Shown here: in pieces, positions 1-34,057 of the stretch
Position numbering within the stretch: the stretch's first letter is position 1
Layout: every line of letters starts with the position of its first letter
IMG/VR virus record: IMGVR_UViG_3300036816_000028
Coordinates: 1-53,375 of that record
Direction: 5' to 3' (one strand)
Origin: a virus
Length of the DNA: 53,375 nt
Notes under the pieces: model-generated
What the model was told of the DNA's origin: nothing
Seen by the model: only the letters and a program-made list of their open reading frames with translations
Databases searched by the model: none
Position numbers and translations under genes: made by a program

Positions 1-904
1 CGACTACCGCGCAGAAGTCCACGCGGGTGCGGCCGTCCACGATGATGTTCTTCAGACCTTCGGTTTTGCCCGCGTTCGGAGCACCGGTGATCAGGTAGTG
101 GCCCAGCGGGCGCGACGTCGCGTCGTCCCCGCACATCCACACCGCCATGACGGAGCCGTCGGCCCGGCCGCCGTACACCAGCGGGCCGTCCGCGATGGAC
201 TTCCCGGGCATGCTGGGGCCCGTCCAGACCCGGACGGCGGTGGCGTCGTCAGACGGCTGGAAAGCCACCCTGACACGGTCAGCGCGGCCTTTGACGGGCG
301 TGACAGTCACGTCGTCAGCGCCCATTCCGACCGCGGAGGCGATGTTCTTCCGGGCGGCCACGACGTCGTCCGACGTGCCCTCTCCGGGCTTGAGCTGGAC
401 GTCCGCCTCCACTCGGCCGTCCTTCTCCGTGATCTTCTTCGTCCGGGCTCCGGCCAGGGCCGCCACCCGCTGGAACAGGGGGTCCTTCTCCCGGGTGGCC
501 TTGTCGGCTTCGTGCTGGGGCTGCATGGCGAAGTGCCGGAGGTTCCAGCACAGGGACAGGATCGGGGCACCTAGTGCCCACAGTTTGACCATCTCCGGGT
601 CCAGCGGGTTCCCGGCGCTGGCCAGGGTGAACCAGCCGGTCACGGCGCCGGTGAAGACGGTGGCCAGCGTCCGGGTGTACTCATGCCGGTTGCGCCAGGT
701 CAGGTGGGTGATGCCGGTCAGGACGACCGCTCCGGCGCCCATCCCGGCCGTCAGAGCCGGGTCCCCGTGGACTGCGAACTGGGCGGCCAGGGCTGCGGGC
801 ATGGCGCTGGCGGTGATGGCCCAGGGCTGCGCCCAGGCCGGGATGGGGCCGGAGCCTTGGGCGGTCTCCTGGCCCTTTGACCTGCTCTTCTTCTTGTCGG
901 ACAT
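1..904 (-). CDS. FtsK/TraB-like DNA translocase, N-terminal part
   Basis: The reading frame starts with ATG at 904 and runs off the left edge, so about 301 N-terminal residues are visible. A lysine-rich start is followed by hydrophobic stretches at about residues 28-68, 79-99 and 105-122, a charged segment, and a Walker A loop GAPNAGKT near residue 275. Membrane segments followed by a P-loop are the layout of FtsK/SpoIIIE and of the TraB conjugal translocases of Streptomyces plasmids, which pump double-stranded DNA across a septum or membrane. It is the last visible gene of a leftward block, after a small unknown gene and an SpdB-like gene, which favours a TraB-like role. The C-terminal DNA-reading domain, which would decide between FtsK and TraB, lies outside the window. 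Confidence 0.72.
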   Translation of the reverse strand, partial: MSDKKKSRSKGQETAQGSGPIPAWAQPWAITASAMPAALAAQFAVHGDPALTAGMGAGAVVLTGITHLTWRNRHEYTRTLATVFTGAVTGWFTLASAGNPLDPEMVKLWALGAPILSLCWNLRHFAMQPQHEADKATREKDPLFQRVAALAGARTKKITEKDGRVEADVQLKPGEGTSDDVVAARKNIASAVGMGADDVTVTPVKGRADRVRVAFQPSDDATAVRVWTGPSMPGKSIADGPLVYGGRADGSVMAVWMCGDDATSRPLGHYLITGAPNAGKTEGLKNIIVDGRTRVDFCAVV

Positions 905-4241: not shown

Positions 4242-4503
4242 GGCCGGGCTTCCCCAGTACCTGGCTGATCTCCTCCGGCGTCATCTCCCGGCCGAAGGGC
4301 TGTTCCGGCGCAGTGAAGTCCACGTGGATGGCGGACACCGTCAGGGCCACCGTGTGGCCGCTGGCGTCGCTGTGCGCCCGCATCCACGCGGAGACGTCGT
4401 CCCAGGCCGTCCCGGTGTCGTTCTCCTTGCAGCCCAGGCACAGGGCCACGTAGAGCGGAATCGAGTCGGCCGGGGTCTTCCTCTTCTGCTCTCCCCAGGG
4501 CAT
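4234..4503 (-). CDS. small hypothetical protein in the sugar block
   Basis: 89 residues, unrecognised. The centre (DDVSAWMRAHSDASGHTVALTV) could be a small alpha/beta domain, and a CLGC pair sits near residue 22. GGAGG lies 4 nt before the ATG, and the start overlaps the epimerase stop. The stop overlaps the start of the next glycosyltransferase, so it is translated with the sugar genes. Confidence 0.6.
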   Translation of the reverse strand: MPWGEQKRKTPADSIPLYVALCLGCKENDTGTAWDDVSAWMRAHSDASGHTVALTVSAIHVDFTAPEQPFGREMTPEEISQVLGKPGRG

Positions 4504-5402
4504 TACGCCTCCTTTCTGAAACACCGGGCCACACCCTGTTCCAGCGTGACCTCCGGCGTGTAGTAGCGGAGCATCTTCGACGGGTCCCCGACCCGGTAGG
4601 CGACGCCGGTGGGCTTCCCGGGGTCGGCCGTGATGGACGCCGGGATGTAGCCCGCGGCAGCCGTGACCAGCTCCGCCAGCTCCCGGAACGACGTGGCCCG
4701 GCCGGTGCACAGGTTCACCGGATCGGTCACGTCCGCGTCGGCCAGCGCCATGACTCCCTTCACGATGTCGTCCACGTGGATGAAGTCCCGGACGCAGTCC
4801 CCGCACCACGTCGGGAACGGGTCCTCCCGGCGCCGTGCGCGCTCCACGAAGGCGCGGAAGGGGTAGGTGTCGTCCTGGTCCTCCCCGTAGCCGGAGAAGG
4901 GCCGTACGACCGTCACCGGGACACCGCTGGCGCGGAGCGATCCGGACAGCGCTTCGCCGACCACCTTCGACCAGCCGTACACCTGGTCCGGCGGGACCGC
5001 CGGACACGGGTCGTCTCCGTCGTGCTCGCTGAGCCAGGTCGGGGCAGTCGCACTCTGGTAGGCCGCCGGGTACATGGCGGAGGAGCTGAAGTAGACCACC
5101 CGGCCGGGCTTCGCCTTCGCGGCCCAGCGGAACATTTCGGCGTCGATGGCCAGGTTCACCGCGGTCTCCAGCGGGGAGCCGTCGATGACCTCCCGGCCGC
5201 CGACCACGGCCGCCGCGTGGACGACCAGGTCCCAGCGCCTGACGTCCCGGCCGCCGCGTTGAGCGTCCCGGAAGTAGTGGACGCAGTCCTGGGAGGAGGA
5301 GCGCTTCGTGTCCAGGCCGGTCACGGAGTACCCGCGTCGGACCAGCTCCGCGATGAAGTGGCGGCCCAGGAAGCCCAGGTCACCGGTCACCAGTGCTTCC
5401 AC
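4503..5402 (-). CDS. NAD-dependent epimerase/dehydratase (extended SDR)
   Basis: 299 residues. The NAD-binding loop TGDLGFLG is at residues 7-14, followed by VVHAAAVVGG, the serine stretch YFSSSAMYP and the YGWSK (YxxxK) catalytic motif. Extended short-chain dehydrogenases of this type epimerise or dehydrate nucleotide sugars. The GTG at 5402 is chosen because it lies 8 nt after AAGGGGAG and places the first Rossmann strand directly at the N terminus, as in the family. It probably prepares the donor sugar for the adjacent glycosyltransferases. Confidence 0.85.
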   Translation of the reverse strand: MEALVTGDLGFLGRHFIAELVRRGYSVTGLDTKRSSSQDCVHYFRDAQRGGRDVRRWDLVVHAAAVVGGREVIDGSPLETAVNLAIDAEMFRWAAKAKPGRVVYFSSSAMYPAAYQSATAPTWLSEHDGDDPCPAVPPDQVYGWSKVVGEALSGSLRASGVPVTVVRPFSGYGEDQDDTYPFRAFVERARRREDPFPTWCGDCVRDFIHVDDIVKGVMALADADVTDPVNLCTGRATSFRELAELVTAAAGYIPASITADPGKPTGVAYRVGDPSKMLRYYTPEVTLEQGVARCFRKEA

Positions 5403-5404
5403 GA

Positions 5405-5611
5405 TCACCACTCCCCTTTGAAGTGCGGCGCGTTCGCCGAAAGGTACTGGTTGTCGGTCAGCGGACGGGCGATGGTCCAGGAGCGCCGCGGGTGAAGCGT
5501 CTTCGGCGCGTAGCAGTGTCGGCAGATCCACCGGCGCCAGCCGCGCGGTTCGAACGGGTGGGGCTCCACCTTGGACGGGTGGATCTTCGTAACGTCGGGC
5601 TTCCTCACCAT
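5405..5611 (-). CDS. small CxxC protein
   Basis: 68 residues with one CRHC pair (WICRHCYAPKTLHPR) and flanking His residues that could bind zinc. Its ATG at 5611 overlaps the stop of the upstream glycosyltransferase, and its stop sits at the start of the epimerase. No function is assigned. Confidence 0.6.
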   Translation of the reverse strand: MVRKPDVTKIHPSKVEPHPFEPRGWRRWICRHCYAPKTLHPRRSWTIARPLTDNQYLSANAPHFKGEW

Positions 5612-6213
5612 GCGCTCCCACTCCCCGACGTGTTGCCGCCGTGCCAGCGCCACTCCCAGGTCCGGGCGTAGTGGTGGACGAACTTGGCGCCTTCGTTCAG
5701 ACACTTGATCCACATGCCCCAGTCCTCACAGGGGTTGCCCGGATCGCCCCGGTGCTCGAACCCGCCGACGTGGTGGAGCAGGGACGTCCGCGCCAGGACC
5801 GTGATCGGGATGTAGTTCTGGTGGCTGCGGATCGTCTCCGCGTCGAACTCCCGGCCTTCGTACTGCGGGAACGGATCGGTTCCTACCGGCAGGTCGAACC
5901 AGGGGTACACCACGTCCGCGTTAGTGTCCCTGGCGGTCTCCAGGAGCGCTTCCACGTGGTGCGGGTACCAACGGTCGTCGGAGTCGAGAAAGGCCGCCCA
6001 CTCCGCCGTGACGCCCGCCAGGGCCCGGGTCCTGGTGACGGCCGCACCGTCGTGTTCGGTGTCCACCGCCACATGGATGGCGTCCACCGGCCGGGACTGC
6101 GCGGTGACGGAGACCAGGGCGTCGATCAGCATGCCGTTCGCCACGTTCGGCGCGTGGACGGGGATGACGGCAGCCACTTGGCCGCGCCGGTACGGCCACG
6201 CGGTCCCGTTCAC
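5605..6213 (-). CDS. GT-A family 2 glycosyltransferase
   Basis: 202 residues. The core motifs are AAVIPVHAPN at the first strand, VTRTRALAGV, the metal-binding FLDSDDRWYPHH and the downstream CEDWGMWIKCL. It is a paralogue in fold, not a copy, of the other two enzymes. GTG at 6213 overlaps the upstream TGA in a GTGA junction. Confidence 0.8.
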   Translation of the reverse strand: MNGTAWPYRRGQVAAVIPVHAPNVANGMLIDALVSVTAQSRPVDAIHVAVDTEHDGAAVTRTRALAGVTAEWAAFLDSDDRWYPHHVEALLETARDTNADVVYPWFDLPVGTDPFPQYEGREFDAETIRSHQNYIPITVLARTSLLHHVGGFEHRGDPGNPCEDWGMWIKCLNEGAKFVHHYARTWEWRWHGGNTSGSGSAW

Positions 6214-6899
6214 CCCTCCACCGCCCAGCGGATCAAGTCGGCATCGGCCGTCAGGCGTCCGTCCGCTTCGTACGCCAGCCAGAAGGCCCGGTCCGCGCTG
6301 TCCACCGCGGGCGCGTTGGCCTCCCGGTAGCCGTCGTCCATGGCGGCCTTCCCCGCGGCCGGGTGAAGGTGCTCGATCACCGTGTCCGGCAAGTAGACCA
6401 GCGTGCCCAGGGCTTCGCCCAGCGCCTTCCAGTAGTTGTCCAGGTACAGGTGGACCATCCCCGGCGGGACCATGGAGCGCAGCGCCCGGACGATCCGCGC
6501 GTCCATGAAGACGGCAGTCGGCAGGTTGGCTCCCTGGAGCAGGTCGTTCCCGTAGACGATCCGCGGCGTGCCGTCGGCGCCGTCCTTCAGGGCGTGAAGG
6601 ACGGCCAGATCCCAGCCGGGCGTGACCGGGAGGTGGTCGTCCCCCATGAAGCCCAGGGCGTCGTAGCTGTCCATGGCCTCCACCGCCATCATGTTCAGCG
6701 TCGGGCCCAGCCGCTGCCGGTGGATGACGGCCAGGTTGGACAGCCCCAACCGGCAGTAGTCCATGCACTTCGGGTCGTCGTCGTCCACGACGAACCGGAA
6801 GGACACGTCCGTCCCGGCGGCCGTCTCCTGCCAGGTCTTCTCCAGCCGGTCCGCGTTCTCCGGGCGCCCGCGGGACGGCACGATCACCAGCATCTTCAC
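6210..6899 (-). CDS. glycosyltransferase-like protein (GT-A fold)
   Basis: 229 residues. The N-terminal strand MLVIVPSRGRPENADRL, an acidic run VVDDDDPK (about 37-44) and GFMGDDHLPVTPGWD (about 83-97) fit a GT-A nucleotide-sugar fold with a DxD-like metal site. The GTG at 6899 forms a GTGA overlap and lies 5 nt after GGAGGAG; an ATG two codons later is also possible. It is more diverged than the other two, so donor and acceptor cannot be predicted. Confidence 0.72.
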   Translation of the reverse strand: MKMLVIVPSRGRPENADRLEKTWQETAAGTDVSFRFVVDDDDPKCMDYCRLGLSNLAVIHRQRLGPTLNMMAVEAMDSYDALGFMGDDHLPVTPGWDLAVLHALKDGADGTPRIVYGNDLLQGANLPTAVFMDARIVRALRSMVPPGMVHLYLDNYWKALGEALGTLVYLPDTVIEHLHPAAGKAAMDDGYREANAPAVDSADRAFWLAYEADGRLTADADLIRWAVEG

Positions 6900-14109: not shown

Positions 14110-14411
14110 GATTCCTCTTTCCTGATCATCGCTCCGTGACCGTTCTTCTCGTACACGCGGCCCACGTTCTTGGCCAGCTTCTTCAGGACTTCGTCCTCCA
14201 GGTCGATCCCGTTCATCTGGGCCACGGAGACCAGGTACAGGAGAACGTCGGCCAGCTCCTCCCCGAAGTCCGGCAGACCCTTCCGCCAGGCGGTGAACGC
14301 CTCTCCGACCTCAGCGGTCAGGAGACCGAACTCCAGAGCGGTGTCCGTGGTGTTGAATCCCTTGGCCCGTTTGTTGATCCAGGCCATCCGCTGAGCATCA
14401 CTGATCTTCAC
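14106..14411 (-). CDS. MazG-like nucleotide pyrophosphohydrolase
   Basis: 101 residues, the usual length of a single MazG domain. The helical metal-binding pattern GLLTAEVGEAFTAW and FGEELADVLLYLVSVA carries the paired E-x-x-E/E-x-x-D acids. MazG enzymes hydrolyse NTPs, and in phages may lower (p)ppGpp or damaged nucleotides. It is coupled to the helicase by a GTGA overlap. Confidence 0.8.
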   Translation of the reverse strand: MKISDAQRMAWINKRAKGFNTTDTALEFGLLTAEVGEAFTAWRKGLPDFGEELADVLLYLVSVAQMNGIDLEDEVLKKLAKNVGRVYEKNGHGAMIRKEES

Positions 14412-16138
14412 CGCTTGCGCTCCTTGACCACGTGGTCGAAGACGCGCGTGGCGGCCTTGACCGCCATGGCGTCGGACAGGTCCCCCTGGCGCAGGTCGTG
14501 GATGTCGGTCGGAACCCCCATCGACTTCGCCCGGGAGATCATCCGCGGCTCCGCGCGCTTGCGGCGCCACGACGCCTGGCGCTCGATCCCGAAGGAGCTG
14601 TAGTTGTCGGCTTCCGTCTCCGCCCAGGCTTGCGCCAGGCCCAGGGTCAGTCCTTCGTGGAGCACGACCCAGCGGGCGGTCCCGTGGGACCTCTCCGGCG
14701 CTCCGCCGACGTTCCACAGACCGTCGGCACGCGGCCACAGAAAGACGAAGCCTCCGCTGACGGAGAGGAACTGGACCCCGCCGGGTGTACGGAGCCACAC
14801 GTGGCTGGACGCGGTGAACAGGTCCAGTTCCTTGTGTTTCAGGAGGAAGGCCGTGTTCCCGGAGTGGGACTCCACCCGGTTGGCGGTCTCCTCCTGCCGG
14901 ATGTACGCCTCCGCCAGGGACTCCCCGTCCCGGACCGCGGTCGTGACCGAGTCGTCCAGGTCCACCAGAGTGGAGATCTTCCCGCCGGTGCCCGCGATGT
15001 CCAGGACCAGGGCGTCCGTCTTGCCCGACCACGGGCGCAGCACGCGGCCCACCATCTGGATGAACAGCGGCGCGGACTGGGTCGGCCGTGCGATGACCGC
15101 GCAGTCGGCCATGGGGAAGTCCGCGCCTTCGGTGAGGACCATGCAGTTTACCAGGACGGAGATGCGTCCGGTCCGGAAGTCGTCGTAGACCGACAGGCGG
15201 CCGGGGATCGTGCGGCCCAGGGAGTCGGTGGTGTCCTCCCGCTTCACGCCCGCGGAGACCGCAGCGGCGGTGTAGCCGCGCTGTTCCAGTTCCTTGACCG
15301 TCTCCTCCGCGACAGCCACCGTCGGCGTGAAAACGATGGTCCGGCGCCCCGGCGCGTAGCGGTGGACCACCTCCGCGATCTGAGCGGGGCCGCCCGCCTG
15401 AAGCAGGGCCTCTCCAAGGGCGCCCGCCTGGTAGTCCCCGGCGGTGCGCTTGACCCCGCCCAGATCCAGGCCGTCCAGCTTGACCTCCTGGCCCTTCGGG
15501 TCCACCAGGTAGCCGCGGGAGATCATCCACAGAACCGACCGGTTGTACACCATGTCATCCCAGACACCGCCCAGGCCGACCCCGTCCCCGCGGGCCAGGG
15601 TCGCGGTGAAGCCGACGGCTTTCGTCCCGGTCCAGACGTCCTCCTTGTTGACCAGGCCGGAGTAGCACCCCAGCGCGGCCATGACGTTCCGGTAGCTCAC
15701 GGCTGCCGCGTGGTGGCATTCGTCCACGATCACCAGGCCGACCGGTCCGGCCACCTCCTGGGCATCCAGGAGGCGCTGAGTCCGGTTGGCGCGGGCCAGG
15801 GTCTGCACGGAGCAGACCATGACGTCGGCGTACACCTGGTCGTCGGCCGCCTTCACCTTGCCGATGTCCAGGTCCGGAGCGGTCGCGCGGAGCTTGGCAA
15901 TCGCCTGGTCGGCCAGTTCGTCCCGGTGGACCAGGACGACGACCCGGCGCGGCTGGCCGGTGTAGCCGTGCACGTCGTGGAACTGCCGGGCCATGGCCGC
16001 GAAGATCACGGTCTTCCCGGCGCCGGTGGGCAGAACGACCGCCGGACGCTGCATGCCGGTGTTCCAGGCGTTCCAGACCGCATCCACGGTCTCCGTCTGG
16101 TAGTCCCGGAGCGTCAGCTCCGTTGCCGCGGCCCTCAT
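14408..16138 (-). CDS. SF2 DEAD/DEAH-box helicase
   Basis: 576 residues. Motif I LPTGAGKT (about 35-42), motif II DECHH (about 137), motif III-like FTATL and motif VI QMVGRVLRPW (about 364) define a superfamily 2 ATPase of the RecG/UvrB-like DEAD box class. The 150-residue C-terminal extension is not recognised. The ATG at 16138 lies 5 nt after GGAGGGG. It probably unwinds DNA or remodels forks together with the nuclease downstream. Confidence 0.85.
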   Translation of the reverse strand: MRAAATELTLRDYQTETVDAVWNAWNTGMQRPAVVLPTGAGKTVIFAAMARQFHDVHGYTGQPRRVVVLVHRDELADQAIAKLRATAPDLDIGKVKAADDQVYADVMVCSVQTLARANRTQRLLDAQEVAGPVGLVIVDECHHAAAVSYRNVMAALGCYSGLVNKEDVWTGTKAVGFTATLARGDGVGLGGVWDDMVYNRSVLWMISRGYLVDPKGQEVKLDGLDLGGVKRTAGDYQAGALGEALLQAGGPAQIAEVVHRYAPGRRTIVFTPTVAVAEETVKELEQRGYTAAAVSAGVKREDTTDSLGRTIPGRLSVYDDFRTGRISVLVNCMVLTEGADFPMADCAVIARPTQSAPLFIQMVGRVLRPWSGKTDALVLDIAGTGGKISTLVDLDDSVTTAVRDGESLAEAYIRQEETANRVESHSGNTAFLLKHKELDLFTASSHVWLRTPGGVQFLSVSGGFVFLWPRADGLWNVGGAPERSHGTARWVVLHEGLTLGLAQAWAETEADNYSSFGIERQASWRRKRAEPRMISRAKSMGVPTDIHDLRQGDLSDAMAVKAATRVFDHVVKERKR

Positions 16139-16344
16139 CGTGTCCCCTCCAGATACTCCGTCAGCGCGTCGCACTGGGCGGGAGTCATGTTCTCCTGACC
16201 GAAGATCGAGATGGCCGTGATGATGACGTCGTCATCGTCCACCCCGTCGAAGACTCCCGTCAGGTGGTGGTCCATCCCCTCTTCGAAGATGAGGGCCGCC
16301 ACCCGGACGACGAAGGCGGCCTCCGCGCGGTTCACCGGTCCCAT
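16135..16344 (-). CDS. small acidic hypothetical protein
   Basis: 69 residues, mostly helical, with an acidic patch VDDDDVIITAISIFG. ATG at 16344 has AAGGAG 5 nt upstream; a GTG at 16335 overlapping the upstream stop is an alternative. Function unknown. Confidence 0.55.
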   Translation of the reverse strand: MGPVNRAEAAFVVRVAALIFEEGMDHHLTGVFDGVDDDDVIITAISIFGQENMTPAQCDALTEYLEGTR

Positions 16345-16541
16345 CCCTTCTCCTTGCGCAGTGCACGACAGTGGGCAAGACCCTTGGCCGACAGGCATCC
16401 GGACGGCCCGGTCCATCCGCGACCGCGGGCGTAGGCCAGACCGACGGGGGTCCCGACACCCAGCGCACCGCCGATGCGGTGTTCGGCGTTCAGGACCATA
16501 TCGTCCGCGTCTTCCCGGGCCATCAGTTCGTCGTCGTCCAT
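16332..16541 (-). CDS. small hypothetical protein
   Basis: 69 residues with a very acidic start (MDDDELMAREDADDMV) and a Gly-rich middle. The AGGAAGAAGGAAG leader lies 2 nt before the ATG. The stop overlaps the next gene. No family recognised. Confidence 0.55.
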   Translation of the reverse strand: MDDDELMAREDADDMVLNAEHRIGGALGVGTPVGLAYARGRGWTGPSGCLSAKGLAHCRALRKEKGWDR

Positions 16542-16576
16542 CTCTTCCTTCTTCCTTGATCGGTAACCCGACGGCA

Positions 16577-16599
16577 GCGGACGGGGGTTTCCCGTCCGC
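16577..16599 (-). terminator. hairpin terminator
   Basis: GCGGACGGG and CCCGTCCGC (9-bp arms) with a 5-nt loop, 19 bases past the stop of the MazG-like gene at 16618. Confidence 0.6.
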
Positions 16600-16617
16600 C
16601 ACCGGACCGGCGGCCGG

Positions 16618-17103
16618 TCAGTTGTCCGTGGCGGCCCCGCGGTTGCCCTGTTCCCGCGCGTTGAGGCCGGGTTCCAGGATGCCCTCACCGTGATTGACCC
16701 GGTCCGCCAGCAAGTCCGCCCCGCGGTTCCCCAGAGCGCCGCGCAGGAGGTTCCCCGGAGCGAACGGGCGGGGAGGCAGTGCTTCGGGGTGGCGCCGGAT
16801 CTCCATCTCCGCCAGGAGCAGGGCGACAGCGGCCACCTGGACCAGTTCGGTGACAGCCTCCAGCGGGCCGTCCGCCGACAGTGCCTCGAAGACCTCCTCC
16901 AGGAGGACGTGGTCCCCGGTGCGCGTCCCGTCCTGGATCGCACGGTCGTTGATCCGCTTCTGGGCGTCGGCGCTGCCGTGGTACAGCTCCCGGGAGCTGT
17001 TGCCGGGGACCAGCGGGTAGTCCTGCGGGCCGAACTTGGCGTCCTGGCGCGACCGCTCCCGGCCGACCTCCGCCAGGAGCTTCATCAGGATGTGCTCTGC
17101 CAT
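16618..17103 (-). CDS. MazG-like family protein
   Basis: 161 residues. RSRQDAKFGPQDYP near the N terminus, then VLLEEVFEALSADGP (about 67-81) and ELVQVAAVALLLAEMEI (about 86-102) match the all-alpha NTP-pyrophosphatase-like proteins common in actinophages. The second acid pair is less complete than in the 101-residue paralogue, so activity is uncertain. GGAGGAA lies 7 nt before the ATG. The last 50 residues are Gly/Asn/Arg-rich. Confidence 0.65.
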   Translation of the reverse strand: MAEHILMKLLAEVGRERSRQDAKFGPQDYPLVPGNSSRELYHGSADAQKRINDRAIQDGTRTGDHVLLEEVFEALSADGPLEAVTELVQVAAVALLLAEMEIRRHPEALPPRPFAPGNLLRGALGNRGADLLADRVNHGEGILEPGLNAREQGNRGAATDN

Positions 17104-17105
17104 GG

Positions 17106-17546
17106 TCAGTTCCTCCAGCTTTTCGATTCGGTGGTGTTGTGGCGGATGTCGTGACCGGACCCGGGCGTGTGGTGTGCCGGGGACCGGGTGCCGAACAGGC
17201 TTCCGCACGCGGAGCACACCTGCTCTTCGTCCTTCCAGGCCCGGTTCCGGACCCAGCCGCACTTCAGGCAGCGCCAGCGCGTGCAGCGACCGCAGGGCTT
17301 CGTTCCCGGCCGGGCGCGGTAGCGGCGCCGGGAGTCCGGCGCGGGGGACGGCGGACGCGGGCGCCGGGCCTTCGGTCCGACGGGGACCGACCGGTCCCGG
17401 GCGGGATCGTCCTCCAGCTCCGTGGCGCACGCGTCGCACATCGGCTCCGCGTAGCCCGTCTGATCGGGGTCCATGGTCCAGGCGGCACAGCGGGCGCAGC
17501 GCGGCCCGCGCGCAGCGACAGCGGCCAGGACAGCAGGGAAGCTCAT
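17106..17546 (-). CDS. multi-zinc-ribbon protein
   Basis: 146 residues with five CxxC-type pairs: CARC, CDAC, CGRC, CLKC and CSAC. A Pro/Arg-rich linker (RRPRPPSPAPDSRRR) separates two zinc blocks. Probably a nucleic-acid-binding or scaffold protein. ATGA overlap with the upstream stop. Confidence 0.6.
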   Translation of the reverse strand: MSFPAVLAAVAARGPRCARCAAWTMDPDQTGYAEPMCDACATELEDDPARDRSVPVGPKARRPRPPSPAPDSRRRYRARPGTKPCGRCTRWRCLKCGWVRNRAWKDEEQVCSACGSLFGTRSPAHHTPGSGHDIRHNTTESKSWRN

Positions 17547-18121
17547 TTCAGGTTCACCGACCCGTCCGTGTCGGACACGGGGACACCGCGGGCCACCCAG
17601 GTCAGGAGGCGGTGGTCCCAGACGACCGCCACCGGCGTACCCGGGATCTCCAGCCGCCGGTCACGGACCAGCCGGGACCCGGCGATGGTCAGGTAGGAGC
17701 TGTTCGAGCGCTCCAGGTTGTTCAGCGCGTCGGCCAGCCGCTCCGCGGCGAAGTCGGGATGGCTGACCGGCCGGTGCCGCTTGCCGGTCGGGACCCGGCG
17801 GTGGACGGAGTCGTTCATCTCTCCTTCCGTGGACGTGCACCGCGGGCACCGGTGGATGCCGACGTACCGGCGGTTCACCCAGTAGCGCAGGTGCCCACAG
17901 GTCCGGCAGATCCAGGTTCCGCAGTCCCCGCAGACGTAGGGAACGAACGCCTTCGGTGCGCACGGGAGGCGGTACCAGCCGCCGTCCCGCTTCTCCACCA
18001 GACCGACGGCGGCCATCTTCGCCAGCTCTACGACAGCGGCGCCGGTGATCCGGCCGTCGTCGCGGGCCAGGTCCAGGATGGCCGCCCAGTTCCGCTCCAC
18101 GCGGTCGGGACGGCCGGTCAC
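17543..18121 (-). CDS. winged-helix plus zinc-ribbon protein
   Basis: 192 residues. The N-terminal 50 residues read as a winged helix (AAILDLARDDGRITGAAVVE, AAVGLVEKRDGGWYRL). A four-Cys zinc ribbon follows (CGDCGTWICRTCGHLRYW), then HRCPRC. The C-terminal half is strand-rich. Start is GTG at 18121, overlapping the upstream TGA. A regulatory or DNA-binding role is likely. Confidence 0.6.
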   Translation of the reverse strand: MTGRPDRVERNWAAILDLARDDGRITGAAVVELAKMAAVGLVEKRDGGWYRLPCAPKAFVPYVCGDCGTWICRTCGHLRYWVNRRYVGIHRCPRCTSTEGEMNDSVHRRVPTGKRHRPVSHPDFAAERLADALNNLERSNSSYLTIAGSRLVRDRRLEIPGTPVAVVWDHRLLTWVARGVPVSDTDGSVNLK

Positions 18122-18483
18122 AACCTGCTCCGGTCGTACTCCGGCAGCGGCGCCCAGTGGACGCTCCGCGACGCACGGACGTGGTTGATCCAGGCGTCGT
18201 GGATGCGGTGGACGAACTCCCACTCCACCGCGACCGCGCCGTAGTCCTCCATGTACGGGGCCAGGGCGGAGATGCAGTCCTCCCGGTTGTGCGGAGAGGT
18301 CACCACGCATTCGTCCCCGGGACGCCCGTAGTCGGCGAGTACCGACCAGCCGAAGAACGGGGCCTCACCGATCCACACGGTGTAGGTCTTTCCCATCCAC
18401 GGATACGTGATCCGGGTGGCGCGGGCCCGCGGCATGGCCGCCAGTTCCGCGGCCGTCACCGGGATCATGATCTGGTTCTTCAT
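18118..18483 (-). CDS. hypothetical protein, first gene of the leftward operon
   Basis: 121 residues, unrecognised. Reads as a compact alpha/beta protein (RATRITYPWMGKTYTVWIGE; ECVVTSPHNREDCISAL). Being promoter-proximal suggests strong early expression, and small promoter-proximal phage genes often act on the host. AGGAAGAAGGAAGGAGG leads into the ATG. Confidence 0.6.
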   Translation of the reverse strand: MKNQIMIPVTAAELAAMPRARATRITYPWMGKTYTVWIGEAPFFGWSVLADYGRPGDECVVTSPHNREDCISALAPYMEDYGAVAVEWEFVHRIHDAWINHVRASRSVHWAPLPEYDRSRL

Positions 18484-18510
18484 GGCCCTCCTTCCTTCTT
18501 CCTGGCCACC

Positions 18511-18539
18511 ACCCTAGGGTCAGTGTCAAAGAGTGTCAA
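18511..18539 (-). promoter_or_regulatory. consensus leftward promoter
   Basis: TTGACA (18539-18534), 17 nt, TAGGGT (18516-18511) on the minus strand, upstream of the operon starting at 18483. Confidence 0.72.
18522..18539. promoter_or_regulatory. 10-bp-phased direct repeat operator
   Basis: AGTGTCAA occurs at 18522-18529 and 18532-18539, exactly one helical turn apart, inside the leftward promoter and covering its -35 box. Confidence 0.6.
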
Positions 18540-18562
18540 TCGCTGTAAAAGACTGCTACGCT
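18533..18562 (+). promoter_or_regulatory. leaderless rightward promoter
   Basis: TACGCT (18557-18562) lies 7 nt before the ATG at 18570. A -35-like GTGTCA (18533-18538) overlaps the leftward -35. No SD is present. Confidence 0.55.
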
Positions 18563-18569
18563 CCCGGTC

Positions 18570-18755
18570 ATGGACACTGACCTGATCACCCGGCGCGGAG
18601 CGGCCGACCGTGCGGGCGTGGACGTCCGCACGGTGGACTACTGGCGCCGGACGGGCAAACTGACGGAACACCGCGACGGCCGCGGGCGCGTCTGGGTGGA
18701 GGTGGAGGAGCTGGACCGGCTGCTGAAGCCGGTCCCCGTTTCTGCCACCCGCTGA
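18570..18755 (+). CDS. HTH regulator (MerR/excisionase-like)
   Basis: 61 residues. LITRRGAADRAGVDVRTVDYW followed by GRVWVEVEELDRLL is the helix-turn-helix plus short wing of MerR-like and excisionase-like small proteins, which bind short direct repeats. It is transcribed away from an operator with two 10-bp-spaced direct repeats, so it probably regulates that divergent region, including itself. It is likely translated from a leaderless mRNA. Confidence 0.68.
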   Translation: MDTDLITRRGAADRAGVDVRTVDYWRRTGKLTEHRDGRGRVWVEVEELDRLLKPVPVSATR

Positions 18756-18780: not shown

Positions 18781-19254
18781 ATGACGATCAAGGCCATTGA
18801 AACGGCCTACGGCGGATGCCGGTTCAGGTCCCGTCTGGAAGCCAGGTGGGCGGTCTTCTTCGACGCCCAGCACTGGACGTGGACCTACGAACCGCAGGGC
18901 TTCACGCTGCCGTCGGGGAACTACCTGCCGGACTTCCAGGTGGCGCCGTACGGTGGGGACCCGGTCTGGTTCGAGGTGAAGGCGCCGGGTGTGCCGGACG
19001 ACGCGCGGTGGCCGGAGCTGGCCGCCGCTACCGGCGTCCTGATCATCGTGGCGAAGGGCATGCACCGGACCGGAGACGACTGTATGACGGCGCACAGCGC
19101 CGACGTGTACGCGCCCGGGGGTGCGGGCCACGGGCTGAAGCTGTGGATGAACGCCCCGCGGTCGGCCTGGGACGCTGCCTCCGGCGCACGGTTCGAGCAC
19201 GGGGAGTCCGGAGCAGCCGGACGCCGCTCCGGGCGCGGACGGAGGCGTCGGTGA
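18781..19254 (+). CDS. PD-(D/E)XK-type nuclease
   Basis: 157 residues. The motif order is GGCRFRSRLEARWAVF, then YLPDFQV (Asp near residue 58) and WFEVKAPG (E-x-K near residue 70). It looks like a small replication-associated endonuclease. The basic tail (GRRSGRGRRRR) may bind DNA. GAGGAAGAGAG precedes the ATG. It directly precedes the primase-polymerase frame, with a GTGA overlap. Confidence 0.7.
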   Translation: MTIKAIETAYGGCRFRSRLEARWAVFFDAQHWTWTYEPQGFTLPSGNYLPDFQVAPYGGDPVWFEVKAPGVPDDARWPELAAATGVLIIVAKGMHRTGDDCMTAHSADVYAPGGAGHGLKLWMNAPRSAWDAASGARFEHGESGAAGRRSGRGRRRR

Positions 19255-22200
19255 CCGCGGAGGCGGTGGAGTCCACCGCTGCCGGGCGGCCGACCGACCA
19301 GGAGGCGTCCCCGCTGAGCCTGGCCCACCAGGCGGAGCTGGAGGCGTCCTGCGTCGGTGAGGAGCACATCGCGGCGCGCGGCTACCGCACGCTGTACGGG
19401 TCGGACGAAGACCGCACGGAGCTTCGGGACCTGCGCATCCCCCGTTGGATGTGGCGGGAGCCCACCGCATTCCCGGGTCTGCTCATCCCGGAGTACCGGG
19501 CCACCGGGGAGCTGATCGGCTACCAGTGGAAGCCGGGTCAGCCGCAGCGCAACCCGGAGGGCAAGCCGGTCAAGTACGCCAGTGCGACCGGGGCGCCCAA
19601 CCACATGGACATCCCGCCCCTGGTGGCGGACAAGGTCCGTGACCCGAAACACTCGCTGTGGATCACCGAAGGCGTGAAGAAGGCCGACTCCCTGGCGACG
19701 CTCGGGAAGGCCGTCGTCACGCTGACCGGCGTCTTCAACTGGCGGTCCAAGCTGGGCACGCTGGGCGACTGGGAGGACATCCCGCTGAAGGGCCGGACCA
19801 TCGTGGTCTGCTTCGACGCGGACGCCCGGGAGAAGCGCACGGTTCTCCTGGCCATGGTCCGGCTGGGCCGCTGGCTGACGTCCAAGGGTGCGGCCGACGT
19901 CCGGTACCTGATCGTCCCGGCAGAGGTGGAGCAGGAGGAGGGCGCGCCCGTCGCGGTGAAGGGCGTGGACGACTACTTCCGAGCTGGGGGGACGCTCGAA
20001 GAGCTGGGCGCGTTCGCCACCCGGGAGGAGCCGGGCGGGGGCGGCGCCCAGGACGCCAGCTTCAGTGACGCCGTGATGGCCGACACCGTGTGCGGTGAGG
20101 CGCTGGAGGGGGTCTTCCGCTGGTCCGCAGGACTGGGGTGGATGACCTGGACCGGGAAGGTCTGGCGGAAGGCCACGGACGCCACCGTGACCGAAGCGGT
20201 ACGTCTGTGGGCGCTGGCCCAGTTCGAACGGGTGCTGGAGCGCCAGCGGGACGACCCGAACCGGGACCTGCGGGCCCAGATCGACGGCTGGCGGAGCGCC
20301 CTGGGAAAGGCCAAGCTGAACGCCCTGGTGGCGTTGTCCCGGGGCATCCTGGAAAGCGATCCGGGGGACTTCGACGCCGACCCGGACGCGATCAACTGCC
20401 CGAACGGCATCGTGGACCTGCGAACGGGCTTGATCGTCCCGCACGACCCGGACCGACTGATGACGAAGATCACCGGCGTGGACTACGTCAAGGACGCGGA
20501 GAGCACCGACTGGCTGAAAGCGCTGGAGGCGTTGCCGGAGGGCGTGCGGGACTGGTTCCAACTCCGCATCGGCCAGGCCGTCACCGGCCATCTGACGCCC
20601 GACGACCTGGCCGTCATCTGCCAGGGCGGAGGGGAGAACGGGAAGTCCACAGTCTTCAATGCGCTCCTGGTGGCCACCGGGCTGTATCACATCATGGTGG
20701 CGGACCGGGCCATGTTGGGGAACGCCAGCGACAACCACCCCACGGAGATGATGGACTTCCGCGGCGCGCGGCTGGCGATGCTGGAGGAGACGCCGGAGGA
20801 GCGGCACCTGGACACCAACCGGCTGAAGAAGCTGGTGGGCACCCGGGAGATCACCGCCCGCGGGATGCGCCAGGACGACGTGACGTTCGAGACGACGCAC
20901 TCCCTGTTCGTGAACACGAACTTCGAACCGCAGGTCAACGAGACGGACCACGGGACCTGGCGCCGTCTGGCGCTCCTGAAATTCCCGTACACCTATCGCA
21001 AGCCCCATGAGCCCCTGATGGGCCCGAACGACCGGCGGGCGGACCCGACGCTCCGGCAGCGGGTGGAGACCCCCGCGGTGATGGAGGCGGCCCTGGCCTG
21101 GGCGGTGGAGGGCGCTCAGCGCTGGTACGCGGCCGACCGCATCATGCCGGGCCTGCCGGACCAGGTCGTTGCCGACACGATGGAGTGGCGCCAGAAGTCG
21201 GACCCGATCCTGAAGTTCGCGAACGAGAACCTGGAGTTCGACCGGGAGAGCCACATCACCGGCGCGGAGCTGACCGACGCGTTCATGTCCTTCCTGGAGT
21301 CGGAGCGGTCGAAGCCGTGGTCCGCGAAGACCTTCGTCAGCCGCTTCGGTGGTCACGATCTGTGTTCACGGAACGGGGTCGCATACAAGTTGATCAAGGC
21401 GCGGGCGGGCCGTTCGACGCGGAAGCCGAACCTGTCCGTATCGGCGTCCTACAAGGCGTGGCTGGGGGTGCGCTTCACCACCCCGGACGACACCGATCCG
21501 TCTCAGGATGTGGGATTTTCCCCGGAATCCCCGAACGAAGATCCTTTCGGGGATTTTAAGAACCCGCAGGTGGAAGGGGGTGTTCAAGATCAGGTAACCC
21601 CAGTAACCTCACCGCCGGTTAAGCGCCCTAGTACGCGAGAAACGCAGCTTAACCGGCGTAGAGGTTACTCAGGTTACCGAAACGATGTCGTTTCGATAAA
21701 TGAAGATCATCAGGAAGAAGAAATGTCCGAAATGAGCGAATCCACGGAGCCCGTGTTCTTCGACCTGGAGGGCGCGAACGCCGACGAACTGTTCACCTAC
21801 AGTGATGACGGAGGGTCACCGCCGGTCGGCTTCGTCCGGCTGGCCGGTGCCGCCGTCGGAGAGGGTGAGATCCGCACCGGTGTGCCGGTGGAGAAGCTGG
21901 TCCGGATGCTGGAGGAGCGGCCGTCGGCGGGCCACAACATCCTGGGCTTCGACGGCCTGGCGCTGGCCTTCCACCACGGCATGGACTGGGAGAAGTTCTG
22001 CGCCGGTGCGGTGGACACGGAGATCAACGCCCGGCTGGACGACCCCCCGCGGTCCAAGGAGACCGGTGGGAGTGAGGACCGGTACGACCTGGACCACATC
22101 GCCGCGAAGCTGGGGGTGGGTGGGAAGACCGACTCCGCCAAGCGGCTGAAGGACAAGTTCGGCGGGTACGACCGCATCCCCGTGGACGACCCGGAGTACC

Positions 22201-23489
22201 ACGCGTACCTGAAGGGCGACGTGGCCGCCACCCGGTCGGTGGCCGGTCGGCTGCCGATGACGGAGTACGGCCAGCGGGAGCACCTTCTGGCGTCCCTGGC
22301 GGGACGGATGACGCTCAACGGCTGCCGGGTGGACGTCGCGCTCCTGCGGAAGCGCCTGAAGGACGGCCAGGCACGCAAGCGGGCGGCCATGGAGGAGCTG
22401 GCGGACGGCCAGGGTCTTCCGCTGGGGCGCACCGTCATGCGCGGCCGGGGTGCGGCGAAGGCGCCGGTGTTCGAGCCCTTCAGCTCCCCTTTCAACACCA
22501 CGGAGGGGAAGGAGTGGCTGGCGGACCTATGGCAGCGCTTCGGGGTGGTCCGGCCGCCGGTGACCGACAGCGGGGCCCTGTCCACCGCCGCGGAGCGGCT
22601 GAAGGCTGTGGCGGACAACCCGCGGTGCCCGGCGGAGCTGAAGCACGTCCTGGAGCTGATGGAGGTCATCACCACCACCAGGACCGTCTACCAGACCGCT
22701 GCCACGTACATGACCGCCGAAGGCCGGGTGCACCCCATGGTCTCCATGCGCCAGGCGTCGGGCCGGTGGTCGCTGACGAAGCCGGGCCTGACCGTCTTCG
22801 GGAAGCGCGGCGGGCGCCACGTGGAGCGGGAGATCATCATTCCGGAGCGGGGCCATGTGGTCATCACCTGCGACCTGGCACAGGTGGACATGCGCGGGGT
22901 GGCGGGCCACTGCCAGGACCCGGCGTACATGGAGCTGTTTCAGCCCGGCAAGGACATCCACCAGGAGATCGCGGACATGCTGGGCATCGCCCGGCAGGAC
23001 GCGAAAGCGTTCGGCCACGGGTACAACTACGGGCTCTCACTGAACGGCGCGGTCCGCCGCGGTGCGGACCTGGAGCTGGCAAAGGTCTTCTACCAGGGCA
23101 TGGTCACCCAGTTCCCGGTCAAGGAGGAGTGGACGAAGAAGATCCAGTCCATGGGGGCCCACGGGGACCTCCTGGACAACGGCTTCGGGCGCAAGATGCG
23201 CTGCGACCCGGAGAGCGCCTTCACCGTCGCGCCCGCGCTGATGGGCCAGGGCAGTGCCCGGGACATCACCATGGAGGTCCTGATCCGGCTCATGACGGCG
23301 CACCCGGAGTACCGGCCGTTCCTGCGGATCTACGTCCACGACGAATTCGTCTTCTCCGTTCCGGAGGCCATGGCGGAGGAGGTCGGAGCGGAGATCGAGA
23401 AGGCGTTCACCTGGGAGTGGCGCGGCGTGCCGATTCTTTGTGATCGCACTGCACCCGCGGAGAGCTGGGGTGCGGCCAGTGCGAAGTGA
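19251..23489 (+). CDS. primase/SF3 helicase-family A DNA polymerase fusion
   Basis: One uninterrupted frame of 1412 codons. N-terminal half: TOPRIM-like WITEGVKK (about 137) and VVCFDADAR (about 186); SF3 helicase Walker A GGGENGKST (about 460) and MLEETPEER (about 510). C-terminal half: exonuclease motifs FFDLEG (836), HNILGFD and YLKGDVAAT (986); polymerase motif A CDLAQVDMR (1204), motif B RQDAKAFGHGYNYG (1248) and motif C VHDEF (1361). All proofreading and polymerase residues are present. GTG at 19251 lies 5 nt after GGAGG. Residues about 744-826 are a low-complexity linker. An in-frame ATG at 21723 after AGGAAGAAGAA could give a separate polymerase. Confidence 0.85.
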   Translation: MTAEAVESTAAGRPTDQEASPLSLAHQAELEASCVGEEHIAARGYRTLYGSDEDRTELRDLRIPRWMWREPTAFPGLLIPEYRATGELIGYQWKPGQPQRNPEGKPVKYASATGAPNHMDIPPLVADKVRDPKHSLWITEGVKKADSLATLGKAVVTLTGVFNWRSKLGTLGDWEDIPLKGRTIVVCFDADAREKRTVLLAMVRLGRWLTSKGAADVRYLIVPAEVEQEEGAPVAVKGVDDYFRAGGTLEELGAFATREEPGGGGAQDASFSDAVMADTVCGEALEGVFRWSAGLGWMTWTGKVWRKATDATVTEAVRLWALAQFERVLERQRDDPNRDLRAQIDGWRSALGKAKLNALVALSRGILESDPGDFDADPDAINCPNGIVDLRTGLIVPHDPDRLMTKITGVDYVKDAESTDWLKALEALPEGVRDWFQLRIGQAVTGHLTPDDLAVICQGGGENGKSTVFNALLVATGLYHIMVADRAMLGNASDNHPTEMMDFRGARLAMLEETPEERHLDTNRLKKLVGTREITARGMRQDDVTFETTHSLFVNTNFEPQVNETDHGTWRRLALLKFPYTYRKPHEPLMGPNDRRADPTLRQRVETPAVMEAALAWAVEGAQRWYAADRIMPGLPDQVVADTMEWRQKSDPILKFANENLEFDRESHITGAELTDAFMSFLESERSKPWSAKTFVSRFGGHDLCSRNGVAYKLIKARAGRSTRKPNLSVSASYKAWLGVRFTTPDDTDPSQDVGFSPESPNEDPFGDFKNPQVEGGVQDQVTPVTSPPVKRPSTRETQLNRRRGYSGYRNDVVSINEDHQEEEMSEMSESTEPVFFDLEGANADELFTYSDDGGSPPVGFVRLAGAAVGEGEIRTGVPVEKLVRMLEERPSAGHNILGFDGLALAFHHGMDWEKFCAGAVDTEINARLDDPPRSKETGGSEDRYDLDHIAAKLGVGGKTDSAKRLKDKFGGYDRIPVDDPEYHAYLKGDVAATRSVAGRLPMTEYGQREHLLASLAGRMTLNGCRVDVALLRKRLKDGQARKRAAMEELADGQGLPLGRTVMRGRGAAKAPVFEPFSSPFNTTEGKEWLADLWQRFGVVRPPVTDSGALSTAAERLKAVADNPRCPAELKHVLELMEVITTTRTVYQTAATYMTAEGRVHPMVSMRQASGRWSLTKPGLTVFGKRGGRHVEREIIIPERGHVVITCDLAQVDMRGVAGHCQDPAYMELFQPGKDIHQEIADMLGIARQDAKAFGHGYNYGLSLNGAVRRGADLELAKVFYQGMVTQFPVKEEWTKKIQSMGAHGDLLDNGFGRKMRCDPESAFTVAPALMGQGSARDITMEVLIRLMTAHPEYRPFLRIYVHDEFVFSVPEAMAEEVGAEIEKAFTWEWRGVPILCDRTAPAESWGAASAK
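21526..21555. repeat. 10-bp-arm dyad in the linker
   Basis: AATCCCCGAA (21526-21535) and TTCGGGGATT (21546-21555) pair perfectly over a 10-nt loop, inside the primase-polymerase linker. Confidence 0.7.
21593..21678. repeat. 32-bp-arm inverted repeat, origin-like
   Basis: Left arm 21593-21624 and right arm 21647-21678 match at 28 of 32 positions, around a 22-nt centre. All three matching blocks share one axis at 21635.5. Each arm contains two GTAACC-type units 9 bp apart. The arms are rich in A/T compared with flanking DNA. Located in coding sequence. Confidence 0.8.
21678..21695. repeat. 8-bp-arm palindrome CGAAACGA-TG-TCGTTTCG
   Basis: Perfect 18-bp dyad abutting the large inverted repeat; ideal size and symmetry for a dimeric DNA-binding protein. 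It lies 28 bases before a possible internal start at 21723. Confidence 0.7.
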
Positions 23490-32227: not shown

Positions 32228-34057
32228 ATGCCGTGGTACAACGCCCTGGGCTTCGGCCGCCGACCGGCGCCGCCGGACGTCCCGGCTTCCCTGACCGCGG
32301 CGGCTGCGCCCGTCAAGGGCCCGCAGTCCCAGTTCCTCCAGCACACCCAGAACTGGCAGAACGAAGCCTGGGACTTCTACGACGCCAACGGGGAGTACAA
32401 CTACGGCGTCACCTGGCTGGCCAACATGATGTCCCAGGTCCGACTCCGCGCCGCCCGGTTGGACCCGGAACTGGACGAACCGGAGATCCTGAACGACGGC
32501 GCAGCCGCGGAGATCATCGCCAAGATGAACGGCGGTGTGGGCGGCCAGTCCCAGATGATGCGGTCGCTGTCCACCCAGCTCTCTGTTCCCGGTGACTGCT
32601 ACCTGATCGGGGAGCAGACGGGCCCGGCGGAGAAGTGGACCGTTCGGTCCGTGGACGAAGTCCGGGCGCAGTCTGGCCGCTTCCAGGTCGTGACCGGGCG
32701 TACGCCCAGCGTGGAGTGGTCCGACCTCCCGCCGGACTCGATTCCGGTACGGATCTGGCGTCCGCATGAGCGTTGGCACCACATCGCCGACAGCCCGTCC
32801 CGCTCCGCCCTGTCCACCATGCGGGAACTGGAACTGGTCAACCGGCACATCACCGCCCAATACCTGTCCCGGCTGGCGTCGGCCGGTGTGCTGATCCTGC
32901 CGGAAGAGGTGACCTTCCCGGTGCGGGAGGAGTTCGAAGACGCTCCGGACCCGTTCGTGGCGGAGTGGGTGGAGGTGGCGCGGGAAGGCATCGCCAACCC
33001 GGGCACGGCGTCCGCCGTTGTTCCGATCCCGATCCGTGTCCCCGGTGAGTACGTGGACAAGATCAAACACCTGGACTTCACGCTCAAGATCGATGACAAG
33101 ATCATCGAAAAGCGGGACAGCGCGATCAACCGCCTGGCCACCCAGATGGACATCCCGACCGAAGTCCTGACCGGCATGGGCAAGGTCAACCACTGGACCG
33201 CCTGGCAACTGGACGAAGGCAGCCTGAAGACGCACATTGCGCCGCTGGCGGAGGTCATCTGCTACTCCCTGACCACCGGGTACTTCCAGGCGCGGCTGGC
33301 CGCCTCCAACGTGCCAGACCCGGAACAGTACGTGGTTTGGTACGACATGTCCGAACTGGCCATCCGGCCGGACAACAGCACTAACGCTCAGGCCGCCTAC
33401 GACCGTCTGGAGATCTCTGGGTCCGCGCTGCGTCGTGAGACCGGCTTCGGTGAGGACGACGCTCCGACCACCCAGGAGCTGGAGGCCATGACCCAGAAGG
33501 CCATCTTGCGCGAGGCTCCGGCGTCCCCGATGGCTGCGGTGGCGGCCGACGCCCTGGCCGGGAAGCATGTCTTCGCCGATGCCATGGGCGGGACCGCGGC
33601 ATCCGGCACCGGCGGGGAGGTGGGCACCAAGCAACCCGCGGAGTCGTCCGACGACGGAGCACCGCCGGGGCCGCCGTCCACGTCTCCGCCGTCCCAGGCC
33701 GCACCGAAGGACACGCCTCCGTCCACATCCCCGCCCGGCGCGGAGCGTGCGTCGGCCGCGGTGATCCGCGCGTCCGCCCAGGCGTCCGCCGTCCACGTGC
33801 TGCGCTACTCCGTGGACGCCGTACCGCAGCTTCTGCATCCACCGGGTGTGTGCTCCACGCACGCGTATTCCTGCCCGTTCACACACAGTGCCTGGGGCCG
33901 CTGGCTTCCGTCTCTGACCACCGGGACCTACGAAGTCCGCCTGGACGCCTTCGGACAGCTCCGGGTGGGCCGTTTCGCGCCGGAAATGGACACGTTGGGC
34001 TGGATCACCACCACAACGGCGGTGGGTCGGAAGGGGACCAACTATGCCCGCGCATGA
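32228..34057 (+). CDS. portal protein
   Basis: 609 residues, the usual portal size. Between terminase and the MuF/protease gene. NEAWDFYDANGEYNYGVTWL (about 43-62), RLRAARLDPELDE, WRPHERWHHIADSP and the long helix region with PTEVLTGMGKVNHWTAWQLDE (about 317-337, split across the core) match actinophage portals. It forms the dodecameric DNA entry ring at one capsid vertex. The C-terminal ~140 residues are Pro/Ala/Ser-rich with an unrecognised Cys/His end. ATG follows GGGAGGC. Confidence 0.82.
   Translation: MPWYNALGFGRRPAPPDVPASLTAAAAPVKGPQSQFLQHTQNWQNEAWDFYDANGEYNYGVTWLANMMSQVRLRAARLDPELDEPEILNDGAAAEIIAKMNGGVGGQSQMMRSLSTQLSVPGDCYLIGEQTGPAEKWTVRSVDEVRAQSGRFQVVTGRTPSVEWSDLPPDSIPVRIWRPHERWHHIADSPSRSALSTMRELELVNRHITAQYLSRLASAGVLILPEEVTFPVREEFEDAPDPFVAEWVEVAREGIANPGTASAVVPIPIRVPGEYVDKIKHLDFTLKIDDKIIEKRDSAINRLATQMDIPTEVLTGMGKVNHWTAWQLDEGSLKTHIAPLAEVICYSLTTGYFQARLAASNVPDPEQYVVWYDMSELAIRPDNSTNAQAAYDRLEISGSALRRETGFGEDDAPTTQELEAMTQKAILREAPASPMAAVAADALAGKHVFADAMGGTAASGTGGEVGTKQPAESSDDGAPPGPPSTSPPSQAAPKDTPPSTSPPGAERASAAVIRASAQASAVHVLRYSVDAVPQLLHPPGVCSTHAYSCPFTHSAWGRWLPSLTTGTYEVRLDAFGQLRVGRFAPEMDTLGWITTTTAVGRKGTNYARA

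What the first reader, a model, noticed from the sequence alone, without database searches (positions are those of the whole stretch)
18511..18562. Compact divergent switch with shared -35 and phased repeats
Leftward TTGACA and rightward -35-like boxes overlap, two AGTGTCAA repeats lie 10 bp apart on the same helix face, and the rightward gene is a MerR/excisionase-like HTH with a leaderless start. It looks like a lifestyle or early/late switch.
Basis: partly seen in the sequence, partly recalled or inferred. Interest (0 to 1): 0.7.

Follow-up and report, generated by a model that had tools for sequence, protein, structure and literature searches.

The report
Phage divergent promoter with repeat operator
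A bacterial virus drives its replication genes in two directions from two back-to-back promoters that share one control box, and a tiny DNA-binding protein encoded right there probably coats a row of evenly spaced repeats to turn its own promoter off; relatives keep the layout while the letters change.

Summary
On the minus strand TTGACA (18539-18534) lies 17 bp from TAGGGT; the same hexamer, read TGTCAA on the plus strand, lies 17 bp from TACGCT, which is 7 nt before the ATG of a 61-aa winged-HTH gene. The two AGTGTCAA copies belong to an array of about four 10-bp units (18523-18562). In relatives with the same HTH-nuclease-primase/polymerase operon, 10-bp phasing upstream of the HTH gene persists although the letters differ (one region per cluster, 25 clusters: score 11.51; shuffles 9.45, sd 0.35, max 10.36). 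Both promoters on one hexamer recur in 7 of 46 loci (200 shuffles: none). The HTH protein's nearest solved structures are BldC and Pukovnik Xis. Best reading: an autorepressor that binds head-to-tail on helically phased repeats, as BldC and phage 186 Apl do, and controls replication operons. A lifestyle switch is not supported: no integrase or HTH_3 repressor was found in this record, and 23 of 27 viral relatives checked have no tyrosine integrase. No binding or expression was measured. New variant of a known kind.

The parts
18118..18483 (-). first leftward gene, 121 aa, function unknown; AGGAGG-type ribosome site just upstream
   Evidence: PHROG 26751 (unknown function) E 8.8e-9
18511..18516 (-). 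leftward -10, TAGGGT
   Evidence: TANNNT 17 bp from TTGACA; the only TTGACN-16..18-TANNNT in the window on either strand
18534..18539 (.). shared -35 hexamer: TTGACA on the minus strand (leftward), TGTCAA on the plus strand (rightward, degenerate)
   Evidence: both promoters on one hexamer in 7 of 46 loci, 0 in 200 shuffles
18523..18562 (+). operator array, four 10-bp units: GTGTCAAAGA, GTGTCAATCG, CTGTAAAAGA, CTGCTACGCT (last weak, contains the rightward -10)
   Evidence: 10-bp phasing kept across relatives
18557..18562 (+). rightward -10, TACGCT, 7 nt before ATG 18570, no ribosome site: predicted leaderless mRNA
   Evidence: leaderless geometry in 19 of 46 loci
18570..18755 (+). 61-aa winged-HTH protein, BldC/Xis-like, proposed autorepressor
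   Evidence: Pfam MerR_1 5.9e-5; family profile hits BldC 3.2e-11 and Pukovnik Xis 8e-9; model pLDDT 84 matches the same two folds
18781..19254 (+). second rightward gene, 157 aa, probable nuclease / Holliday junction resolvase
   Evidence: PHROG 21138 E 2.5e-32 (unknown function), weak resolvase match; some phage homologues are annotated holliday junction resolvase
19251..23489 (+). third rightward gene, D5-type primase/helicase fused to family A DNA polymerase (start at 19251 chosen by me)
   Evidence: Pfam D5_N 5e-19, DNA_pol_A 1e-26
14408..16174 (-). DEAD/ResIII helicase of the leftward arm, kept on the opposite strand in relatives
   Evidence: synteny

Best explanation
This is an autoregulated divergent early promoter of an actinobacterial phage. 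SHOWN: two promoter-like elements back to back on one hexamer; an array of about four 10-bp direct repeats from the shared -35 through the rightward -10; a BldC/Xis-fold wHTH gene immediately downstream; conservation of the phasing, the promoter geometry and the gene order in diverged relatives. INFERRED: the HTH protein, translated from a leaderless mRNA as soon as the rightward promoter fires, binds the repeats as head-to-tail monomers on one face of the helix. The filament covers the whole rightward promoter and the leftward -35, so it represses its own operon (HTH, nuclease, primase/polymerase) strongly and the leftward recombination/helicase operon too. This limits early expression once enough protein is made. 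Because both promoters use one hexamer, RNA polymerase should occupy only one direction at a time.
For: Phasing: mean best lag-10 score 12.39 against 10.07 for random windows, and lag 10 is the best lag in 17 of 46 loci. With one region per cluster (25 clusters) it is 11.51 against a dinucleotide-shuffle null of 9.45, sd 0.35, max 10.36; lag 20 (11.06) is the next highest. The repeat words differ between clades (GTGTCAA, CTGYCA, GGTGNCA, GTGTAA, GTGGGTAA, GTNGCAA; read), as expected for an operator under selection for spacing. Promoters: leftward + rightward + start on one TGTCAA in 7 of 46 loci, rightward part in 16 of 46; 200 shuffles gave at most 0 and 1. Protein: BldC and Pukovnik Xis are the top single-domain sequence matches and the top fold matches; BldC binds direct repeats head-to-tail (PMC5859096, abstract and sections 10, 12, 13 read). 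Recognition-helix residue 23 goes with the repeat word (13 of 17 D/N/K/A/S-type loci have TGTCA, 1 of 25 Y/R-type). Position: the array overlaps both promoters. One HTH_17 match per record in 26 of 28 records. No second comparable array in the window.
Against: No binding or expression data. The residue/word association rests on only 2 changes on the polymerase tree (same direction in 1.7 of 2 on average; the sign test cannot reach significance). After declustering, lag 10 is the best lag in 5 of 25 clusters (5.4 averaged over representatives, null mean 1.70, max 6), so several clades show no clear array, e.g. L070, L066/L068, L071. BldC's head-to-tail core residues are only partly kept here (BldC Phe21 and Leu43 align with Ala15 and Gly37, and base-contacting Arg30 with Tyr24, by the ungapped alignment). 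Repression rather than activation is inferred from position. Whytu, the best-matching named isolate, shows no array.
Confidence: 0.64

Rival explanations
1. Lifestyle switch: the HTH protein acts like a Cro, Apl or Cox protein and decides between lytic growth and a dormant state, with the two directions standing for lytic and maintenance programmes.
For: Phage 186 Apl represses both pR and pL from phased repeats between them (abstract and passages of PMC7498355). Some relatives carry a tyrosine integrase (records of L064, L069, L106, L127) or ParA (L069, L076, L106), so part of the family may be temperate.
Against: Both arms are DNA-metabolism genes and none looks like an immunity repressor. 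No integrase, serine recombinase or HTH_3 match in this record; 23 of 27 viral relatives checked lack PF00589, and 0 of 29 records have PF07508. The module is the same with or without integrase.
Confidence: 0.14
2. Excisionase: the protein is a recombination directionality factor and the repeats are its arm sites.
For: Fold and sequence are close to Pukovnik Xis and RdfS; PHROG 66 is annotated excisionase and transcriptional regulator.
Against: No integrase in this record; the repeats lie in a promoter, not beside an integrase; the gene stays with the primase/polymerase operon in relatives.
Confidence: 0.06
3. Activator: as in classical MerR promoters the protein bends DNA and helps polymerase use the poor rightward -35, so it starts rather than limits the replication operon.
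For: The rightward -35 is degenerate (2-4 of 6) while the leftward one is perfect; an RdfS homologue activates two promoters (passage of PMC11963761).
Against: The spacer is 17 bp, already normal, not the 19-20 bp of classical MerR promoters (recalled); the array runs into the -10, where a bound filament should block polymerase.
Confidence: 0.13
4. Replication origin: the 10-bp repeats are iterons for initiation, and transcription control is secondary.
For: The cumulative GC skew of the window is lowest at 16501-18500, next to the site; the site is A+T-rich for this genome (48% against 68% GC) and adjoins the replication genes.
Against: GC skew also follows gene orientation, which flips here; the repeats sit precisely on promoter elements.
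Confidence: 0.07
5. No regulator site: the repeats are only duplicated -35 boxes or chance.
For: TTGACA occurs in both copies; short exact repeats at this spacing occur elsewhere in the window.
Against: The 10-bp pitch persists in relatives whose units are not TTGACA.
Confidence: 0.05

Closest known systems
Phage 186 Apl at pR-pL (Apl/Cox excisionase-regulators)
   Same: Small phage protein, direct repeats spaced one helix turn (10-11 bp), cooperative, represses both of two opposed early promoters (abstract and passages of PMC7498355).
   Different: In this phage group the promoters are face to face, 40-60 bp apart, with seven Apl sites in 186, and Apl also works at att. Here the promoters are back to back on one hexamer, about four repeats, the gene is leaderless and heads a replication operon, and no integrase is seen in this record.
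BldC of Streptomyces (PDB 6AMA, 6AMK)
   Same: wHTH only, about 60-70 aa; best sequence-profile hit and top Foldseek fold match; binds direct repeats head to tail (PMC5859096, abstract and sections 10, 12, 13 read).
   Different: BldC is a host developmental regulator with 9-bp units (AATTXXXX(C)); here units are 10 bp and of another sequence, and two of three core contact residues differ.
Mycobacteriophage Pukovnik Xis (PDB 4J2N)
   Same: Best structural Z in VIA-align (9.2, rmsd 1.7, 53 residues); small phage wHTH.
   Different: An excisionase; no integrase link here.
RdfS and CvkR
   Same: Profile hits 4e-4 and 6.8e-5; mobile-element wHTH/MerR-type regulators.
   Different: RdfS has an extra N-terminal helix and serves ICE excision (passages of PMC11963761). 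CvkR is a longer MerR-type repressor of CRISPR-associated transposons (title and abstract start only).
Lambda-type pR/pRM divergent switch
   Same: Back-to-back promoters with shared control sites; leaderless repressor mRNA (recalled).
   Different: No CI/Cro-type protein found here; direct rather than inverted repeats.

Membership tests
BldC-like regulators | wHTH-only protein of about 60-70 aa with BldC fold | tested here: met
   61 aa, pLDDT 84; 6ama E 7e-4, TM 0.73/0.80; Z 8.8
BldC-like regulators | head-to-tail core and base-contact residues (Phe21, Trp31, Leu43, Arg30) conserved | tested here: not met
   by the ungapped structural alignment (offset 6) Trp31 = W25, but Phe21 = A15, Leu43 = G37, Arg30 = Y24; many relatives have Arg at the Arg30 place
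BldC-like regulators | operator of direct repeats | tested here: met
   phased repeats, but at 10 bp instead of 9 bp and without AATTXXXX(C)
BldC-like regulators | cooperative head-to-tail oligomer on DNA | not testable with these tools
   needs protein
Apl/Cox/Xis excisionases | partner integrase and att arm sites | tested here: not met
   no PF00589 or PF07508 match in this record; record may be a fragment
Apl/Cox/Xis excisionases | direct repeats spaced one helix turn between opposed early promoters | tested here: met
   that the promoters are early is inferred from the genes they face
Apl/Cox/Xis excisionases | repression of both promoters | not testable with these tools
   needs reporters
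Classical MerR regulators | C-terminal coiled-coil dimer helix and effector domain | tested here: not met
   protein ends at residue 61 after the wHTH
Classical MerR regulators | operator palindrome in a 19-20 bp spacer | tested here: not met
   17-bp spacer, direct repeats; the defining spacer length is recalled
Lambda-type CI/Cro switch | HTH_3-type repressor beside the divergent promoters | tested here: not met
   no PF01381 match in this record

The most novel reading that the evidence does not exclude
A single hexamer serves as -35 of two opposed promoters, so one polymerase at a time must choose a direction, and a self-made protein filament growing on helically phased repeats sets that choice: an inherently exclusive two-way replication switch that keeps its geometry while its repeat word and recognition helix change together, independent of integration or lysogeny.
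Probability: 0.22. Interest if true: 0.68.

Novelty: new variant of a known kind. Interest (0 to 1): 0.46.

Why it matters
It points to a phage-encoded BldC/Apl-type regulator working as the control knob of a replication module rather than of excision or host development, and offers dozens of natural variants of operator and protein with fixed spacing. That makes it possible to test how head-to-tail wHTH filaments read DNA, and how divergent promoters that share a -35 choose direction. The literature searches made here listed no paper that, by its title and abstract start, describes this arrangement; most subscription papers are not held.

Tried and rejected
Searches for close DNA relatives in named phages gave nothing. 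Protein scans of viral contigs with the HTH or the leftward gene alone found none; the leftward gene had no tblastn match in phages. Five Arthrobacter phage records match the HTH weakly; Whytu, the one I fetched, has no phased array upstream of either MerR-like gene and no divergent partner. Mycobacterium phage Saroj shares the nuclease, in another setting.

WD-40 and beta-propeller hits in the PDB sequence searches were set aside as short repeat-motif artefacts. A search with the L110 protein found nothing. A first clustering of upstream regions merged nearly all loci because the gapped identity threshold was too low, and was redone with ungapped identity. A strict sigma-70 scan found no promoter.

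Considered and set aside: an inverted copy of the repeat at the start of the HTH gene (18573-18582 against 18518-18527, within pair I5), because it falls in coding sequence and is not clearly kept in relatives.

Rows dropped before counts: of 48 distinct HTH proteins, 46 had enough upstream DNA for the phasing tests; 44 went into alignment A3 (L086, L130, L063, L134 left out); 43 into the tree. The fraction of relatives without an integrase is from 27 chosen viral relatives (the call also held this record and one host genome), none of certified completeness.

Full report
WHAT IS THERE. The window is a 53,375-base virus record, 68% GC. At 18511-18562 two promoter-like elements stand back to back. 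Leftward: TTGACA (18539-18534), 17 bp, TAGGGT (18516-18511), then a ribosome site and a 121-aa gene. Rightward: the same hexamer read as TGTCAA, 17 bp, TACGCT (18557-18562), 7 nt, ATG (18570) of a 61-aa gene with no ribosome site. The TTGACN-TANNNT arrangement occurs once in the window on either strand.

IS IT MORE THAN CHANCE? In the window alone it is suggestive but not overwhelming. Two AGTGTCAA occur in 12 of 100 shuffles, three of 53,342 windows reach its lag-10 score, and exact 8-mer pairs at similar spacing exist elsewhere. A 10-bp triple scan puts the site first (21 of 21; next unrelated 15; best of 20 shuffles 16), but that consensus came from the site itself. The answer comes from relatives.

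RELATIVES. The nuclease and primase/polymerase proteins brought in 60, 15 and 63 viral loci, with overlap between searches, and 4 loci in bacterial genomes including Streptomyces africanus. A profile of the HTH found it upstream of the polymerase in most of the polymerase loci; 48 distinct HTH proteins were kept. In the fullest loci the order is HTH, nuclease, polymerase rightward, with the helicase leftward.

PHASING. In 46 upstream regions lag 10 was the best of 16 lags in 17, and lag 20 in 6; the mean lag-10 score was 12.39 against 10.07 in random windows. With one region per cluster (25 clusters) the lag-10 mean was 11.51 against 9.45 (sd 0.35, max 10.36) for dinucleotide shuffles, and lag 20 was next (11.06). 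The best-lag count alone was weaker: 5.4 of 25 on average, null mean 1.70, max 6. The repeated word changes between clades while the pitch stays.

PROMOTERS. Leftward -10, shared TGTCAA, rightward -10 and start codon in register occur in 7 of 46 loci (window, L002, L062, L089, L108, L098, L097); the rightward part in 16 of 46; 200 shuffles gave at most 0 and 1. A TANNNT 6-7 nt before the chosen start, the mark of a leaderless mRNA, occurs in 19 of 46 (null mean 1.15, max 6; 10 of 25 clusters). One clade (L064, L069, L073 and others) has instead a leader with an AAGGAGG ribosome site; by my reading of those letters its two -35s are offset by one repeat.

PROTEIN. Pfam MerR_1 is above its cut-off. 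The family profile finds BldC (3.2e-11), Pukovnik Xis (8e-9), CvkR (6.8e-5) and RdfS (4e-4) among solved structures. The predicted model (pLDDT 84) matches BldC and Pukovnik Xis best (Foldseek E 7e-4 and 1.4e-3; VIA Z 8.8 and 9.2). BldC binds 9-bp direct repeats head to tail (PMC5859096; abstract and sections 10, 12, 13 read). By the ungapped alignment, BldC Trp31 is kept (W25), but Phe21, Leu43 and Arg30 are not (A15, G37, Y24). So it probably works like BldC; I do not file it as a BldC orthologue.

PROTEIN AND REPEAT CHANGE TOGETHER, WITH A CAVEAT. At recognition-helix position 23, D/N/K/A/S-type proteins have TGTCA upstream in 13 of 17 loci, Y/R-type in 1 of 25 (2 loci of other types not counted; Fisher p 1.1e-6). 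On a polymerase tree of 43 rows the residue class changes only twice, and the word goes with it in 1.7 of 2 pairs on average, so the sample is too small for a test. By the tree, one of those changes is the window's own clade (window, L002, L062), nested among Y/R-type phages. A swap of the whole module could explain it as well.

WHAT IT CONTROLS. Rightward: HTH, nuclease, primase/helicase-polymerase fusion, later terminase, holin, portal, capsid and tail genes. Leftward: helicase, exonuclease and others. No integrase, large serine recombinase, ParA or HTH_3 repressor was found in this record. Among 27 viral relatives, 4 have a tyrosine integrase (records of L064, L069, L106, L127) and 3 have ParA (L069, L076, L106). 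HTH_17 is found once per record in 26 of 28. The module therefore follows replication, not integration.

MECHANISM. Best reading: early autorepression by a head-to-tail filament that covers the rightward promoter and the shared -35. Phage 186 Apl is the nearest working precedent: repeats 10-11 bp apart between pR and pL, both repressed (abstract and passages of PMC7498355). The difference is the back-to-back layout on one hexamer, the leaderless gene, and the tie to replication instead of excision. Activation, a lifestyle role, and an origin (cumulative GC skew is lowest at 16501-18500, though orientation also flips there) remain open at lower odds.

VERDICT. Observation confirmed and extended; interpretation partly supported; a new variant of a known kind, of moderate interest.

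Noticed in passing
window 19251-23489: D5-type primase/helicase fused to a family A DNA polymerase in one protein of about 1412 aa; in the named phages listed as best matches the two activities are annotated as separate genes. Full-length matches to the fusion are in many viral contigs.
   Followed up: partly
window 34044-37283: A 1079-aa open frame matches RNA ligase at its start and head maturation protease / portal families further on: a possible fusion or mis-set frame.
   Followed up: no
window 18518-18527 and 18573-18582: 10-bp perfect inverted repeat linking the array's first unit to the first codons of the HTH gene (within pair I5).
   Followed up: partly
window 4503-6768: Sugar epimerase and glycosyltransferase-like genes in the leftward arm, perhaps DNA or surface modification.
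   Followed up: no
L140 (contig NZ_MUKA01000058.1, 92743 bases): A Streptomyces africanus contig of the same length as an IMG/VR virus record: a possible extrachromosomal or phage-plasmid relative.
   Followed up: no
window 16501-18500: Minimum of cumulative GC skew beside the divergent region.
   Followed up: no
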